Of a DNA stretch of 31,529 nt, positions 24,917-31,529 are shown one piece after another. The stretch comes from a virus: IMG/VR virus record IMGVR_UViG_3300037170_000022, positions 1-31,529 of that record; one strand, written 5' to 3'. Numbering within the stretch: position 1 is the first letter of the stretch; every line of letters begins with the position of its first letter. The translations under genes and the position numbers were made by a program. The notes beneath the pieces are model-generated. The model made no database searches. It saw nothing but the letters and a program-made list of their open reading frames with translations, and was not told where the DNA came from.

Positions 24917-25278
24917 ATGCTTACACCTGACTCCGTCTGCGCAATCGCGCAACAGCAGTTAGGTCGCAGAGGCTGAGCCGTGACGCTCATAGCGGCGTCC
25001 TCCGGCTTGTGGCGGTTGCGCGATAAATTATGAATGCCCGGAGACAAGCAGAAAATATCAGTTCGGCAAACTGAGACACTACCCACTGTCGGGTCTTCCT
25101 GATCGACGCCGGTGGCGATCTCTGCGGCCTCGCGTAGTCCCTCTGCCCGGCTTCGGGCTTTGGCACGGGTGAGGGCGGCTAGCAAGATCGGCATTGCTGT
25201 TTCGCGTCCCAACACGCGGCCAGTGGATGCGTCGAGCGTGTCGAATAGCTCCCGCGCCTCGCGTTCGGTAGGGGTCAT
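24853..25278 (-). CDS. Small operon protein, C-terminus probably altered by insertion
   Basis: This encodes 141 aa from the ATG at 25278, overlapping the upstream stop (ATGA). The first 60 residues (MTPTEREARELFDTLDASTG, then RAEGLREAAEIATGVD) look like a normal helical phage protein. From about residue 67 the character changes to an irregular, cysteine-rich sequence (CCCAIAQ) that runs 64 bases into the low-GC gene. The native C-terminus was probably replaced; the 23987-24079 remnant may be part of what was lost. An internal ATG at MSVTAQ with GGAGG upstream could start a separate 45-residue peptide. Function is unknown. Confidence 0.5.
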   Translation of the reverse strand: MTPTEREARELFDTLDASTGRVLGRETAMPILLAALTRAKARSRAEGLREAAEIATGVDQEDPTVGSVSVCRTDIFCLSPGIHNLSRNRHKPEDAAMSVTAQPLRPNCCCAIAQTESGVSICLIWPHRLSGRLGPKRWRGL

Positions 25279-25544
25279 GATTGTGTTCCTCCCGCCGAGG
25301 CAACCTCGCGAATAGCGTCCTGATTGCCAGCCTCAATGTTGTCGGAGACAAGTTGCATGACCATTACTGACGTAAATCGGCGTTGGTCCTGCATGGCGAT
25401 CAGTTGTCCCATCGTGTAGGCATAGATCGCCAGTATCTCCTCAGCCGGGGTGTTGGCGAAGTCCGTCCGCATGATATCGAGCATCTTGTCACGTAAAGCG
25501 ATGTGGCGCGGTGACGGCGTGATTTTCTTCGTCGGTACCTTCAT
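25275..25544 (-). CDS. Small helical protein of the early operon
   Basis: This encodes 89 aa. Both ends overlap neighbours by 4 bases. The sequence is basic at the start (MKVPTKKITPSPRHIALRDK) and then helical (ILAIYAYTMGQLIAMQDQRR; VMQLVSDNIEAGN). No metal, nucleotide-binding or membrane motif is seen. I do not recognise a family. Codon use and tight coupling support a real gene of the phage accessory set. Confidence 0.6.
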   Translation of the reverse strand: MKVPTKKITPSPRHIALRDKMLDIMRTDFANTPAEEILAIYAYTMGQLIAMQDQRRFTSVMVMQLVSDNIEAGNQDAIREVASAGGTQS

Positions 25545-26130: not shown

Positions 26131-26631
26131 TCACTCCTTTTGAATTGAAAGGGCGCGGAGGGCGGAGAGGATAGCCTGCCGATCAGCGCGGCTAAGGCCC
26201 ATCAGTATAGCAGACGGCCCCTCATCGAGGCCCTGCGCGTTAGATTGTTCGTTTTCAAGAGTCGCAGCGAACCGCTCGCTCAGCTTCGCCGCGACGCCGG
26301 TTAGCACCGTGACTTCTGGTCGCGGCCGTTTCAGCGTCGTCTGCGCTCGATCAGCCGCCGCCATGCCCATCTCGCCGCGAACGAAGCTTTCTTTCTGCGC
26401 CGCGGCGTCGGTCGGGGCGGGGGATTCGGCGGGGAGTCCCTCGACCATATGACGAATCATCGCGTCGGCCTGCGTCGCGTCGAGCAAATTAGTTCCGGTT
26501 GGCCAAGGCCATGAGACGGAAGGGTCGAAGCTAACCCCCGCATCGGGACTGAAATTGTTGGGCAACTTCCACGACAGGAAGCGGTCAACCATGTGTTTGA
26601 TCTGGGCATCGCTCAGCTTTGATTCGCTCAT
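26131..26631 (-). CDS. Conserved-type phage protein of unknown function
   Basis: This encodes 166 aa. The first half carries a pattern that I recall from many phage hypotheticals: MVDRFLSWKLPNNFSPDAG, then GTNLLDATQADAMIRHMVEG. The second half is helical, rich in E, R and A (LSERFAATLENEQSN; LSRADRQAILSALRAL). No catalytic motif is visible. It is coupled by ATGA to the upstream gene. The family is widespread but, to my knowledge, uncharacterised. Confidence 0.65.
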   Translation of the reverse strand: MSESKLSDAQIKHMVDRFLSWKLPNNFSPDAGVSFDPSVSWPWPTGTNLLDATQADAMIRHMVEGLPAESPAPTDAAAQKESFVRGEMGMAAADRAQTTLKRPRPEVTVLTGVAAKLSERFAATLENEQSNAQGLDEGPSAILMGLSRADRQAILSALRALSIQKE

Positions 26632-26927
26632 TTTGGCTGCTCCGTGGGTGGGGGGTTGATGCTCGATCCTGTGGTCGGGGCCTTCACGATGTACGGCTCC
26701 AACGCCAGAAGCAGGTCTTTGTTGCTCTCGACCAGCTTCGCATTCTCCGCCCGCGCCGCTTCTAGCTCGGCGGTGAGGTGGGTGATGGTGGCGTCGCGGG
26801 GGTCAATCTTAGCGTGAAATCCGCCTTGCGTGGTAACGGGGAGATACCAGCCCGCAGTATCTGACCAAGCGTAGCCATTCTTTGCAAACCAGTCGGGGTC
26901 TGCATCCCAAGGTCCTCCGATTGTCAC
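26628..26927 (-). CDS. Small protein with coiled coil, GTG start
   Basis: This encodes 99 aa. I place the start at GTG 26927, which overlaps the stop of the DfrB-like gene (GTGA) and follows GGAGAAGG. The longer frame to 27128 runs through the DfrB-like gene and its extra part is basic shadow sequence. The N-terminal half contains W, Y and P ([18 protein letters not shown]). The second half is a coiled coil ([20 protein letters not shown]). The role is unknown. Confidence 0.6.
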
Positions 26928-27316
26928 TGGCCCTTCTCCTCTCCCCGCGCGCGGATGGCTTCGTAACAGGCCGCGTGCTGTTTGCGAGCGCCTTCGTCGA
27001 GACCTTGCGAATAGGAGTCCATGCCTTCGTGCCGCCACGCAGAAAATCCTACAGCGGCAAGACAAGCGGCCCTCTCCCCTTCCACCGTCTCGCGGATGGC
27101 GGAGGGGTGGGACAGTTCCGGCTTCCATTCAACCAGCGCGGTCTCGGGATAGATTTGCACACTGCCCGGCTCGTTCGTCGACTCGACGCAGTAGCCGCGC
27201 GGGGTCATGTCGGTTGCGTAGAACCCGACGACCTTGCCGCGCCAGGATGATCCGGATTTCTTCTGGACGAAGTCGCCGAGCTTGAATGCCCCGGCGGAGT
27301 TGTAGAAGTTATCCAT
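26924..27316 (-). CDS. R67/DfrB-type (type II) dihydrofolate reductase homologue with C-terminal extension
   Basis: This encodes 130 aa from the ATG at 27316 (ATGs at 27322 and 27331 are also possible; GGAG is best placed for 27316). Residues 11-64 match the SH3-like R67 DHFR almost end to end. Shared stretches are GD, KKSG, W-x-G, VG-x-Y, TP-x-[13 protein letters not shown] and AL; from memory of R67, about 31 of 54 positions are identical. The active-site residues Lys32, Gln67, Ile68 and Tyr69 of R67 correspond to K19, Q54, I55 and Y56. In R67 four copies form one active pore that reduces dihydrofolate and resists trimethoprim. The last 65 residues ([18 protein letters not shown] and on) are an unrelated helical domain absent from R67. 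No thymidylate synthase gene is nearby. Confidence 0.8.
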
Positions 27317-27341
27317 GATCATAGTCTCCATTCCTTATCAC

Positions 27342-27749: not shown

Positions 27750-27964
27750 GCCAATCTCCTGGGCTTCCCTCGATCTAGCCGGGCGATCGCACCGACCGGT
27801 GGTATGGCGGACGCGAGCATATGCCGCGCTCGACGGAGCATCCCAAGCGGCACAAAGACCGTCCGCTCATCGTCCAAGCCTTCATAGAGGTTCATAAGGC
27901 CCCAAATTGGAGCCATCGCTTCCGCCGCGCGTTCTACAGCGGCGGGATCAAGCGAGGGGGTCAT
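27746..27964 (-). CDS. Small early-operon protein
   Basis: This encodes 72 aa, overlapping both neighbours by 4 bases. Sequence features: a helical N-terminus (DPAAVERAAEAMAPIWGLMN), an acidic turn (EGLDDERT) and a basic helix (MLRRARHMLASAI). No known motif. It follows the ATPase gene directly, so its expression is coupled to the recombination genes; whether it works with them is unknown. Confidence 0.6.
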   Translation of the reverse strand: MTPSLDPAAVERAAEAMAPIWGLMNLYEGLDDERTVFVPLGMLRRARHMLASAIPPVGAIARLDRGKPRRLA

Positions 27965-28917
27965 GGTGCTTGTTCCTGCTCAGTCGCCGCCGCGGCGACG
28001 CGCGCCTTCCATTCATCGAGACGCGCCCGCCCGATGGCGTCGCGCTCGGCCTTCGTCCGCGCCTTCCAGAAAGCCTCCAGCGGGGCAAGCGTCGACATGG
28101 ACGCCGCGGCGTCACCTTCGGCCAGGAGCGCGGAGATGTCCGCCTGCATGGCCGGCGGCACGTCGCCGCGCGCCCACTCGGCCAGGAGCCGGCCCGTCGT
28201 CTCGTCAAGAGGCTTGTCCTCAGCGAAGATGTGCTCGAATTGCTGCGGCAGTTTCATCATCAGCTTCTCGCCGACGTGGTCGCTGCGCCAGCTTGGGACG
28301 CCGCCCGCCTTCGGCAGCAGCAGGCAGTTCACCGTCATCTCGAACAGCAGTTCCTCGCCGGCGATCGGCATGAAACCCATCTCGATCGGCTGACCGCCCT
28401 TGACCGGCTTCGTCTTCTCCTTCGCGCGGAAGCAGAAGATGAAGTTGGCGTTGAGTTGCAGCAGGCCGGTGATGAACTGTTGGCGCAGCTTGGCCGGCTT
28501 GATCCACGCCGCCATCTTGACGCGCTCACGCTTCGCCATGTCGTCGCCGGCCATGCGCTCGACTTCGGCTTCCTGCGTCAGCAGATAGCCGCCGATGCCA
28601 ATGTGCTCATGGCTGAGCGAGTCGACGACGATGACGCCGGCGCCCTTGTTGACGCAGTGCTGCATCGCGGCGAGGTAGTCGAGCGAACCAAACGGCGCGC
28701 CGAACGCAATGTGTCGAAACTTGAACGTGTCCGCATAGTGAAGCGCACGTCTCGACTCTGTGTCGACGACAAAAATCTCCCCGCCCGAAACATTTTGGAT
28801 GCCGGTCGCGACGCGGAGCGCGGAGAAAGTCTTGCCACTCCCGGAAGGTCCCATAAGTCCGACCAACAGCGGAACGTGCGAGCGGACGGCGGGCTGGTCG
28901 TCAAACGTGCGGGTCAA
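27961..28917 (-). CDS. RecA/Sak4-like phage recombination ATPase
   Basis: This encodes 318 aa. I place the start at TTG 28917 because it overlaps the nuclease stop (TTGA) and GGAGG lies 6 bases upstream; the longer frame to 29073 is shadow. The Walker A motif GPSGSGKT is at residues 23-30, VVDTES at 50-55, and the Walker B-like VIVVDSLSHE around D99. This layout is that of AAA/RecA-core phage ATPases, including the Sak4 single-strand annealing group. A basic segment lies near KRERVKMAAWIKPAKLRQQF. Together with the adjacent nuclease it suggests a recombination or replication-repair pair. A DNA-packaging role is unlikely given the location. Confidence 0.75.
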   Translation of the reverse strand: MTRTFDDQPAVRSHVPLLVGLMGPSGSGKTFSALRVATGIQNVSGGEIFVVDTESRRALHYADTFKFRHIAFGAPFGSLDYLAAMQHCVNKGAGVIVVDSLSHEHIGIGGYLLTQEAEVERMAGDDMAKRERVKMAAWIKPAKLRQQFITGLLQLNANFIFCFRAKEKTKPVKGGQPIEMGFMPIAGEELLFEMTVNCLLLPKAGGVPSWRSDHVGEKLMMKLPQQFEHIFAEDKPLDETTGRLLAEWARGDVPPAMQADISALLAEGDAAASMSTLAPLEAFWKARTKAERDAIGRARLDEWKARVAAAATEQEQAP

Positions 28918-29831
28918 AGCTGTCCTCCATCCATCCTGCCAAGCATCTCGACCGGGCCCATTACGCTCGTAGGCGCGACCTCGCGCTCCAGCCATTCCCG
29001 CTCTTTCCAGTCGGGATAAGCGAGTCGCCGCGGCAGGTTCTCGAAATGCGGCCACCTGCCGTTGCCCAGGCACTCGCGCCAGATGTCGATCGCATACTGC
29101 ATCTTGCGCCGGCCCATCTCGCGCATCGTCGCGTCCGCTTCGATGATGCGCAGGCCGAAGGGCTCGTCTTCCTCGAGAAACAACCAGCGAAAGTTGATCC
29201 GGCCCGCCAGGTCGGGGAAGACGAGTTCGGCGACGTGGATGTAGAACGCCGCGCGCATGTCGTAGCCCATGTCAACCATGTGCCGCGCGAGCGCCGCGTC
29301 GTTGGCGAGGTTGATTTTACTAATTTTCCAATCATTGATCCACGGCGGCGCGAAGCTGTCCATCATCGCGCGCAGCCACGCGCCCTTGTCTTCGGCGATC
29401 AGGACGCATTCCTGCATCCCGAGGCTGATCCCCTCCTTGACCGCCGTTTCCTTAGCGACGGCGGCGATGTCGATGACCTGCTCGAACTGGTGCGTCAGGA
29501 GCGGGATCAGCCCGGCGGCGCGGGCGGCCGCGCGCTGCTCCTGCGCCGCGTCCTTTTTCCAATCCTTGAAGCCTGTTACGATCTTGATGCGCGCCGCGCC
29601 GCCGGCGAGGTAGTCATGGACGGCCGAGCCAAGGGCGAACTTGTCGTCATCCTCCGGCTTGAACTTCGGATTGAGCCGCGGATGCTGTAGCCATGCGTGC
29701 TTCGGCGTCTGCGCGACGAGCACCTTGGCGAGCGAACTCGACAGCGACGGCTCGATCGCACAGTCGGCGTGATAATCGGCCGGCGCGACGGCGGGATGCA
29801 AGCCGGCGGCGAGGCGTAGGGGATCGGTCAA
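28914..29831 (-). CDS. PD-(D/E)XK nuclease-like protein (RecB/Cas4-type)
   Basis: This encodes 305 aa from a TTG start at 29831 with GGGAGG 6 bases upstream, overlapping the previous stop (TTGA). The pattern fits the phage PD-(D/E)XK family PF12684: ALGSAVHDYL (residues 66-75), QECVLIAED with E141, MMDSF with D158 and DWKISKI with D167 and K169 as probable metal-binding and catalytic residues. A C-terminal part rich in W, R and E follows. Family knowledge: such nucleases often sit beside phage annealases or ATPases and probably process DNA ends. It is directly followed by the Sak4-like ATPase. Confidence 0.72.
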   Translation of the reverse strand: MTDPLRLAAGLHPAVAPADYHADCAIEPSLSSSLAKVLVAQTPKHAWLQHPRLNPKFKPEDDDKFALGSAVHDYLAGGAARIKIVTGFKDWKKDAAQEQRAAARAAGLIPLLTHQFEQVIDIAAVAKETAVKEGISLGMQECVLIAEDKGAWLRAMMDSFAPPWINDWKISKINLANDAALARHMVDMGYDMRAAFYIHVAELVFPDLAGRINFRWLFLEEDEPFGLRIIEADATMREMGRRKMQYAIDIWRECLGNGRWPHFENLPRRLAYPDWKEREWLEREVAPTSVMGPVEMLGRMDGGQL

Positions 29832-30763: not shown

Positions 30764-31116
30764 TCCTCTGCCCCCCAAATGCGCCGAGCCTCCTCCCGCT
30801 CGTCGCGCAAATCGTCTGCGTGCTGGTTCTCGTTGCTTGCGTCCTCGGCGATTGCCGCGTAAATCTGCCCGTCCGGATCCTCGTAAAGCCAGTTCTCGAT
30901 CTCGGCCTTGAGCCACGCGGGGCAATCGACGGGAGTCTCTTTGCCGCCGCCATCGTCCTTGCGCAGATCAATGAACGCGACCTCATACTCCATCGGCGAT
31001 GCGGGCTCGCCACCGCTCGCATAGGACGGTCCCTGCTCGGCAACCGCGTCAGCTGTGATTTTGTAGTCGTAGCCGACAACGTACTCGGCCCCGGCGATGG
31101 TCAGGTAGGCGTCCAT
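30760..31116 (-). CDS. Small acidic early-operon protein
   Basis: This encodes 118 aa from the ATG at 31116. No good ribosome binding site lies directly before it; a GGAG is 36-40 bases upstream inside the direct repeat. The product is acidic, with a strand-rich start (DAYLTIAGAEYVVGYDYKIT), a middle MEYEVAFIDLRKDD and an acidic helical end (DDLRDEREEARRIW). Function is unknown. It is the first clear gene of the - strand operon visible in the window and follows the repeat array. Confidence 0.6.
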   Translation of the reverse strand: MDAYLTIAGAEYVVGYDYKITADAVAEQGPSYASGGEPASPMEYEVAFIDLRKDDGGGKETPVDCPAWLKAEIENWLYEDPDGQIYAAIAEDASNENQHADDLRDEREEARRIWGAEE

Positions 31117-31147
31117 GATCAGTGACCGTCCGTTGTGGAAGTGTTGA

Positions 31148-31170
31148 ATCGCTGCTCTCCTAGGCCGACC
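31148..31170. repeat. 23-bp direct repeat, copy 1
   Basis: The first copy of a 23-base sequence (contains GCTGCTCTCCTAGGCCGACC) repeated exactly at 31359-31381. On the - strand it carries a stop codon TAG and a ribosome-binding-like AGGAGAG. It marks one edge of the first hexamer block. Confidence 0.8.
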
Positions 31171-31360
31171 ACGACCACGACCACGACCCCGACCGCGACC
31201 GCGACCCCGACCACGACCGCGACCCCGACCGCGACCGCGACCGCGACCGCGACCACGACCACGACCACGACCCCGACCGCGACCACGACCCCGACCACGA
31301 CCGCGACCACGACCCCGACCGCGACCGCGACCCCGACCACGCTTGAATTGCTGGGTTCAT
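31160..31360 (-). CDS. Possible Ser-X repeat protein (low complexity)
   Basis: This encodes 66 aa from an ATG at 31360 with AGGAGAG 7 bases upstream. After MNPAIQAW the product is pure dipeptide repeat, Ser followed by Gly, Arg or Trp, about 29 units, ending in SA and TAG. All six frames are open across this repeat, so an open frame is no evidence by itself; only the start signal supports it. An alternative frame gives Val-Ala/Val/Gly repeats and ends 2 bases before the next gene. It may not be translated. Confidence 0.3.
   Translation of the reverse strand: MNPAIQAWSGSRSRSGSWSRSWSGSWSRSGSWSWSWSRSRSRSRSGSRSWSGSRSRSGSWSWSWSA
31165..31340. repeat. Hexamer array NCGACC, block 1 (about 29 units)
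   Basis: Tandem hexamers NCGACC in which only the first base varies, between a, c and g (roughly 11, 7-8 and 11 times) and never t. There is no longer fixed period in the order. The block lies between the two copies of the 23-bp direct repeat, with 18 unique bases after it. Confidence 0.85.
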
Positions 31361-31375
31361 CGCTGCTCTCCTAGG

Positions 31376-31381
<6 letters not shown>
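31359..31381. repeat. 23-bp direct repeat, copy 2
   Basis: An exact second copy of 31148-31170. On the - strand it gives the stop of an upstream repeat frame, then AGGAGAG and the ATG of the 31160-31360 frame. The spacing of 211 bases suggests a tandem duplication of flank plus array. Confidence 0.8.

Positions 31382-31529
<148 letters not shown>

What the first reader, a model, noticed from the sequence alone, without database searches (positions are those of the whole stretch)
26924..27316. DfrB (R67-type) dihydrofolate reductase homologue in a phage operon, fused to an extra domain
Seen: a 54-residue region with KKSG, the VQIY active-site motif and nearly all glycine, proline and tyrosine positions of R67 DHFR; K19/Q54/I55/Y56 match Lys32/Gln67/Ile68/Tyr69. 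Known: R67 (DfrB) is a plasmid-borne trimethoprim-resistant enzyme of obscure origin with an SH3-like fold. Inference: phages like this could be a reservoir or ancestor of DfrB genes. The 65-residue C-terminal helical extension is not part of R67 and may change assembly of the four-subunit pore.
Basis: partly seen in the sequence, partly recalled or inferred. Interest (0 to 1): 0.85.

Follow-up and report, generated by a model that had tools for sequence, protein, structure and literature searches.

The report
Phage DfrB-type (R67-like) reductase domain protein
This small phage gene really does carry the same unusual pore-forming enzyme domain as the plasmid trimethoprim-resistance protein R67; such phage relatives were already known, but a wider search shows hundreds of them, with the pore kept intact, and places R67 among them, so the old question of where R67 came from becomes testable.

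Summary
Confirmed. Window 27316-26924 (minus strand) encodes a 130-aa protein. Residues 6-61 match Pfam DHFR_2/R67 (E 1.8e-22), and the predicted fold's best PDB hit is R67 DHFR. K32, W38, S65 and VQIY are all kept. It sits in an early operon of a podovirus-like phage, next to exonuclease VIII-like and AAA_24 genes. The nearest tested homologue, DfrB-H5, a proven tetramer and reductase, is 67% identical to this domain. New here: over 240 phage relatives in IMG/VR; near-invariant pore residues in a set not selected on them; R67 nested among phage proteins, one 81% identical in the core, while this phage lies on another branch; one fusion to thymidylate synthase; and a sister phage keeping a divergent DfrB-like gene without the C-terminal extension. 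That extension is a shuffled phage tail, not a DfrB feature. DHFR competence is likely; its native role is less certain, because most carriers lack thymidylate synthase and a related SH3 family without VQIY also fuses to it. New member of a known kind.

The parts
26924..27316 (-). DfrB-like protein, 130 aa (P0001), ATG 27316 to TGA 26924-26926
27125..27286 (-). SH3-like DfrB domain, residues 11-64; pLDDT about 96 over residues 11-60; 58% identical to R67 core
27260..27262 (-). K19, equivalent of R67 Lys32 (ligand binding)
   Evidence: role from PMC9835603
27242..27244 (-). W25, equivalent of R67 Trp38 (tetramerization)
   Evidence: role from PMC9835603
27149..27160 (-). VQIY, residues 53-56, equivalent of R67 66-69 (pore active site)
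26927..27124 (-). C-terminal extension, residues 65-130, two predicted helices; modular phage tail with HPSAIRExVEGER and [10 protein letters not shown] segments
27326..27329 (-). GGAG ribosome-binding-like site 9 nt upstream of ATG 27316
   Evidence: read directly
26628..26927 (-). downstream gene, GTG start overlapping the DfrB stop (GTGA), suggesting translational coupling
   Evidence: read directly
27961..29073 (-). AAA_24 ATPase (a Sak4-like recombination role is an inference), upstream on the same strand; exact start uncertain
28914..29831 (-). PDDEXK nuclease, exonuclease VIII-like

Best explanation
The gene encodes a member of the wider DfrB (R67) domain family carried by phages. Its SH3-like domain should assemble into a four-subunit ring with one central pore lined by K19, S52, V53, Q54, I55 and Y56, and should reduce dihydrofolate with NADPH slowly and independently of trimethoprim (inferred from homology and from tested homologues). 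Most likely native role (inferred, about 0.4): a phage-encoded dihydrofolate reductase that helps thymidylate supply during infection, expressed with the recombination genes. The C-terminal helices are an exchangeable tail typical of this phage's accessory genes and not part of the catalytic machine.
For: Shown: family match and fold match, R67 2gqv/1vie as top hits at E about 4e-6, next best 0.1. In 36 non-redundant phage sequences found by patterns that do not include the pore motif, K32 is kept in 97%, Q67 in 35 of 35 present, Y69 97%, V66 97%, I68 92%, S65 92%, W38 100%, while other surface positions vary freely (W38 lies inside one of the two search patterns, so its figure is biased). dN/dS over the domain between two phages 0.18. 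DfrB-H5 (same Glu at position 62) is 67% identical to this domain and is a proven tetrameric reductase; DfrB-H4, from a Vibrio phage, is 65% identical and its full-length and extracted forms gave trimethoprim resistance (PMC9835603). One phage carries the domain, with K32, W38 and VQIY, in frame at the N-terminus of thymidylate synthase, with the only good start site in the DfrB part; one phage has thyX within 0.8 kb. None of 50 carrier records has a FolA-type DHFR, against 14 of 50 ThyA-bearing viral records without DfrB. A sister phage retains a divergent DfrB-like gene in the same variable slot.
Against: Only 11 of 50 carriers encode ThyA and 1 ThyX, the ThyA cases all in genomes of 65 kb or more; the window itself was not searched for them separately and may be incomplete. 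The FolA contrast within ThyA-bearing phages is weak (0 of 11 against 14 of 50, Fisher p 0.054, relatedness not corrected). The related LHIY SH3 family, without VQIY, is also fused to ThyA, so ThyA fusion alone does not prove reductase function. Fusions to HNH-like and Lar-like parts suggest an adaptor role in some proteins. No tetramer was modelled and no activity measured; DfrB-H3 from a Pseudomonas phage failed to show resistance, which its authors ascribe to insolubility (PMC9835603).
Confidence: 0.6

Rival explanations
1. A non-catalytic SH3/KOW-like binding module that phages attach to many proteins; reductase activity is an accident of the pore, as PMC9835603 proposes for the ancestors of DfrB.
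For: Very diverse architectures, from 59-aa stand-alone to C-terminal domain of 450-aa proteins; two Lar zinc-finger fusions; an HNH-like fusion; homology to an LHIY SH3 family lacking the pore motif (hhalign probability 88.8, E 2.5e-6); most carriers lack ThyA.
Against: A generic adaptor does not need a near-invariant K32 and Q67 facing the pore; many copies are stand-alone with nothing to adapt.
Confidence: 0.25
2. The tetrameric pore binds or reduces another pterin or nucleotide ligand (for example a nucleotide signal made by host defence), so DHFR activity is a side reaction.
For: Pore conserved without steady company of ThyA; location in accessory regions beside recombination, HNH and integrase genes in several phages.
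Against: No ligand or defence link was found; a literature search for sponge proteins with this fold gave nothing. The only demonstrated activity in the family is dihydrofolate reduction.
Confidence: 0.12
3. A decaying or non-functional copy of a resistance gene picked up by a phage.
For: Below the NCBIfam resistance cut-off.
Against: Purifying selection (dN/dS 0.18), all key residues present, retention in a sister phage at about 63% identity, and phage diversity encloses the resistance clade rather than the reverse.
Confidence: 0.03

Closest known systems
DfrB-H5, Methylobacterium pseudosasicola (PMC9835603; L208)
   Same: SH3-like DfrB domain, 67% identical, GSVQIYP and Glu at position 62, embedded with extra sequence
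   Different: 365 aa with the domain internal; here 130 aa with the domain at the N-terminus and an unrelated tail
DfrB-H4 (Vibrio phage, L009) and DfrB-H3 (Pseudomonas phage PS-1, L013), PMC9835603
   Same: phage-encoded DfrB domains with extra parts, 65% and 50% identical in the domain
   Different: other phages, other fused parts; records L009 and L013 are matched to H4 and H3 by host and neighbouring methyltransferase, not by the paper's accession table
R67 DHFR / DfrB1 (PDB 1vie, 2gqv)
   Same: 58% identical core, all pore residues, same predicted fold
   Different: 78 aa without C-terminal extension, mobile resistance gene; W45 and H62 are F and E here
Burkholderiales chromosomal dfrB (PMC11662351)
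   Same: same domain; proposed source of mobile dfrB
   Different: 78-aa resistance type, no phage structural genes among the families listed for the neighbours
Phage SH3 family ending in LHIY (RHEph10 ThyA N-terminus, Kolga gp36)
   Same: homologous SH3 domain by profile comparison, found with ThyA
   Different: lacks W38 and VQIY; function unknown

Membership tests
DfrB / PF06442 DHFR_2 domain family | Match above the curated Pfam cut-off | tested here: met
   79.4 bits against 25
DfrB / PF06442 DHFR_2 domain family | R67 SH3-like fold | tested here: met
   AlphaFold2 domain model, Foldseek top hits R67 with E about 4e-6, TM 0.8-0.88
DfrB / PF06442 DHFR_2 domain family | K32, W38 and VQIY | tested here: met
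DfrB enzymes | Homotetramer with one central pore | not testable with these tools
   no multimer prediction available; W38 and S59 equivalents kept, W45 is F, H62 is E as in the tetrameric DfrB-H5
DfrB enzymes | NADPH-dependent dihydrofolate reduction insensitive to trimethoprim | not testable with these tools
   only inferred from homologues in PMC9835603
NCBIfam NF000331 DfrB resistance gene | Score above 137 bits (resistance-type, 78 aa) | tested here: not met
   83 bits; 130 aa
Acquired DfrB resistance clade (DfrB1 and Burkholderiales) | Falls inside that clade | tested here: not met
   window groups elsewhere with L002, L024 and alphaproteobacterial sequences; tree of 54 columns, weak resolution

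The most novel reading that the evidence does not exclude
Phages use the DfrB domain as their own dihydrofolate reductase, in some cases fused to thymidylate synthase as an R67-type bifunctional DHFR-TS, and the plasmid resistance enzyme R67 descends from such phage genes.
Probability: 0.3. Interest if true: 0.8.

Novelty: new member of a known kind. Interest (0 to 1): 0.5.

Why it matters
The origin and natural function of R67/DfrB are called unknown in the papers read here (PMC9835603, PMC11662351). The phage set found from this lead is many times larger than the 12 distant homologues published in 2023, shows that the pore is under selection outside the resistance context, includes phage proteins 77-81% identical to R67 in the core, and gives three direct handles on native function: a ThyA fusion, a thyX neighbour, and sister phages that keep the gene while swapping its sequence and tail. 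The window's own protein is an ordinary member of that set.

Tried and rejected
(1) Pore conservation from the first viral search was not used, because its pattern contained VQIYP; one search was run with patterns outside the motif. (2) RHEph10 and RHph_N1_10 first looked like further DfrB-ThyA fusions; reading the frames showed the SH3 part is LHIY type without W38 or VQIY, so only L077 counts. (3) Prophage origin of Burkholderiales dfrB: no phage structural family among the 25 listed for 119 neighbouring ORFs; rejected for those loci within about 5.5 kb. (4) Sponge/anti-defence link: literature search without a lead. (5) ThyA enrichment: 11 of 50 carriers, but all at 65 kb or more, so genome size explains it as well. 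(7) Absence of the exonuclease from the sister contig G090 says nothing, since that 24-kb record ends within the neighbouring AAA gene. (8) One query was a consensus-like sequence typed by hand; it served only to find real members of the LHIY family and no homology claim rests on it.

Full report
WHAT IS THERE. The minus-strand ORF 27316-26924 encodes 130 aa. Residues 6-61 match Pfam DHFR_2 (E 1.8e-22), NCBIfam trim_DfrB (E 1.1e-23 but 83 bits against a cut-off of 137), phrog_31682 (E 3.3e-19) and R67 DHFR in the PDB (E 2.5e-17). All catalytic-pore and key tetramer residues of R67 are present: K19, W25, S46, S52, V53-Y56. Differences are F32 at W45 and E49 at H62. An AlphaFold2 model of the domain (pLDDT 88) has R67 as its seven best PDB matches, E 4e-6 to 1e-5, the next fold at 0.1. 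The full-length model puts two helices, lower confidence, after the domain.

SURROUNDINGS. The window is a viral record with podovirus-like structural genes on the plus strand (portal/adaptor, major head, tail, internal virion proteins) and a minus-strand early region with an exonuclease VIII-like PDDEXK protein and an AAA_24 protein. The DfrB-like gene lies between that pair and small unknown genes; its stop overlaps a GTG start (GTGA). The head protein is 47% identical to Microcystis phage Mwe-JY08 and about 30% to Caulobacter and Mesorhizobium phages.

HOW COMMON. 26 annotated phage records match, mostly Rhizobium phages, many already annotated as dihydrofolate reductase. IMG/VR gave 244 confirmed stretches with patterns in the N-terminal half (the 80 best were read), and one-per-species bacterial genomes gave 53 loci, mostly Alphaproteobacteria and Burkholderiales. 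Architectures run from 59-aa stand-alone proteins to C-terminal domains of 450-aa proteins. Pfam found only two Lar-like partners, one thymidylate synthase and one marginal match among 85 extended proteins.

SELECTION ON THE PORE. In 36 non-redundant sequences not chosen by the motif, K32, Q67, Y69, V66, I68 and S65 are 92-100% conserved. Exceptions are a truncated frame (L119), VQVW (L130) and VQLY (L150). H62 of R67 is Glu in 61%, as here and as in the active DfrB-H5. Between the window and L002 the domain has dN/dS 0.18 (only 58 codons).

THE EXTENSION. L002 (another phage, with no match to the window's head or AAA proteins) shares a 231-bp island at 90% identity covering the domain, while its tail differs except for HPSAIRExVEG and [10 protein letters not shown]. 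The same two segments recur in a neighbouring, otherwise different gene of L002 (E 1e-5), as DNA repeats of 46 and 38 nt. The sister phage L024, with a 98% identical head protein and 92-93% identical DNA on both flanks of the slot, has a 76-aa DfrB-like protein without the tail in that slot. So the domain is kept and the tail is exchanged (inference from these facts).

RELATION TO R67. In a tree of 108 sequences over 54 columns, R67 and the Burkholderiales-type sequences form a supported group with phage L057 (100/89), next to phages L050, L063, L087, L110 and L157 (84/88); the window sits elsewhere with L002, L024 and alphaproteobacterial sequences, weakly supported. Core identity to R67: L057 81%, L050 77%, window 58%. 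The tree is unrooted and poorly resolved, so direction of transfer is not shown. Burkholderiales loci show no phage structural genes nearby.

FUNCTION. L077 carries the domain (K, W and VQIY kept) fused in frame to a full thymidylate synthase (PF00303 E 1.2e-107), start with a good ribosome site before the DfrB part. In L035 thyX lies within 0.8 kb. Of 50 carriers 11 have ThyA, 1 ThyX, none FolA. Among 50 ThyA-bearing viral records without DfrB, 14 have FolA; within ThyA-bearing phages the contrast is 0 of 11 against 14 of 50, p 0.054, without correction for relatedness. Caution: other rhizobial phages fuse a related SH3 domain of LHIY type, lacking the pore motif, to ThyA; the two families are homologous by profile comparison (E 2.5e-6). 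So the ThyA fusion is suggestive, not proof.

KNOWN OR NEW. Lemay-St-Denis et al. 2023 (PMC9835603) showed that DfrB homologues embedded in other proteins, two of them from phages, can be tetrameric trimethoprim-insensitive reductases and that the domain alone suffices. A 2024 study (PMC11662351) places the environmental source of mobile dfrB in Burkholderiales and leaves the original function open. The window protein is therefore a new member of a known kind. The larger phage set, the conserved pore, the ThyA fusion, the sister-phage comparison and the LHIY relatives were not found in the papers read here; papers outside the held library, and supplementary files, were not searched.

Noticed in passing
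L077:4001-4999: In-frame fusion of a DfrB-type domain (res 1-52) to thymidylate synthase in a 71-kb viral contig: an R67-type DHFR-TS arrangement.
   Followed up: partly
L231:2483-3499, L232:2483-3478, L244, L246: Thymidylate synthases of Rhizobium phages RHEph10 and RHph_N1_10 and two IMG/VR contigs carry an in-frame N-terminal SH3 domain of LHIY type; in RHEph10 and RHph_N1_10 the annotated starts (ATG 2654) skip it, a TTG at 2483 with AAGGA upstream fits.
   Followed up: partly
L235:916-2158: Pelagibacter phage Kolga gp36 joins an unrelated N-terminal part to an LHVY SH3 domain, 5 bp upstream of a thymidylate synthase gene.
   Followed up: no
L002:3736-7400: Neighbouring accessory genes share short near-identical DNA cassettes (46 nt HPSAIREAVEGERE, 38 nt [12 protein letters not shown], a 217-nt module twice), looking like in-frame joints for shuffling.
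   Followed up: partly
L016:3001-3213: Ti plasmid of Rhizobium sp. K1/93 carries a 70-aa DfrB-like gene beside a Tn3 transposase and recombinase, annotated as trimethoprim-resistant DHFR; a distinct KKGRASWRGKIVGWYRT branch found on rhizobial and sphingomonad replicons.
   Followed up: no
L073:3593-4195; L022:2644-3312: DfrB-like domains C-terminal to an HNH-nuclease-like part (L073, read by eye) and to a Lar-like CPFCGG zinc finger (L022, read by eye; two Lar matches).
   Followed up: no
window 31106-31529: Array of 12-nt direct repeats at the window's end, coding a Val/Gly/Ala or Pro/Thr low-complexity stretch.
   Followed up: no
window 25083-25279: A second 198-bp island 90% identical between the window and the otherwise unrelated phage L002, in a small ORF with an AAEIATG tail.
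   Followed up: no
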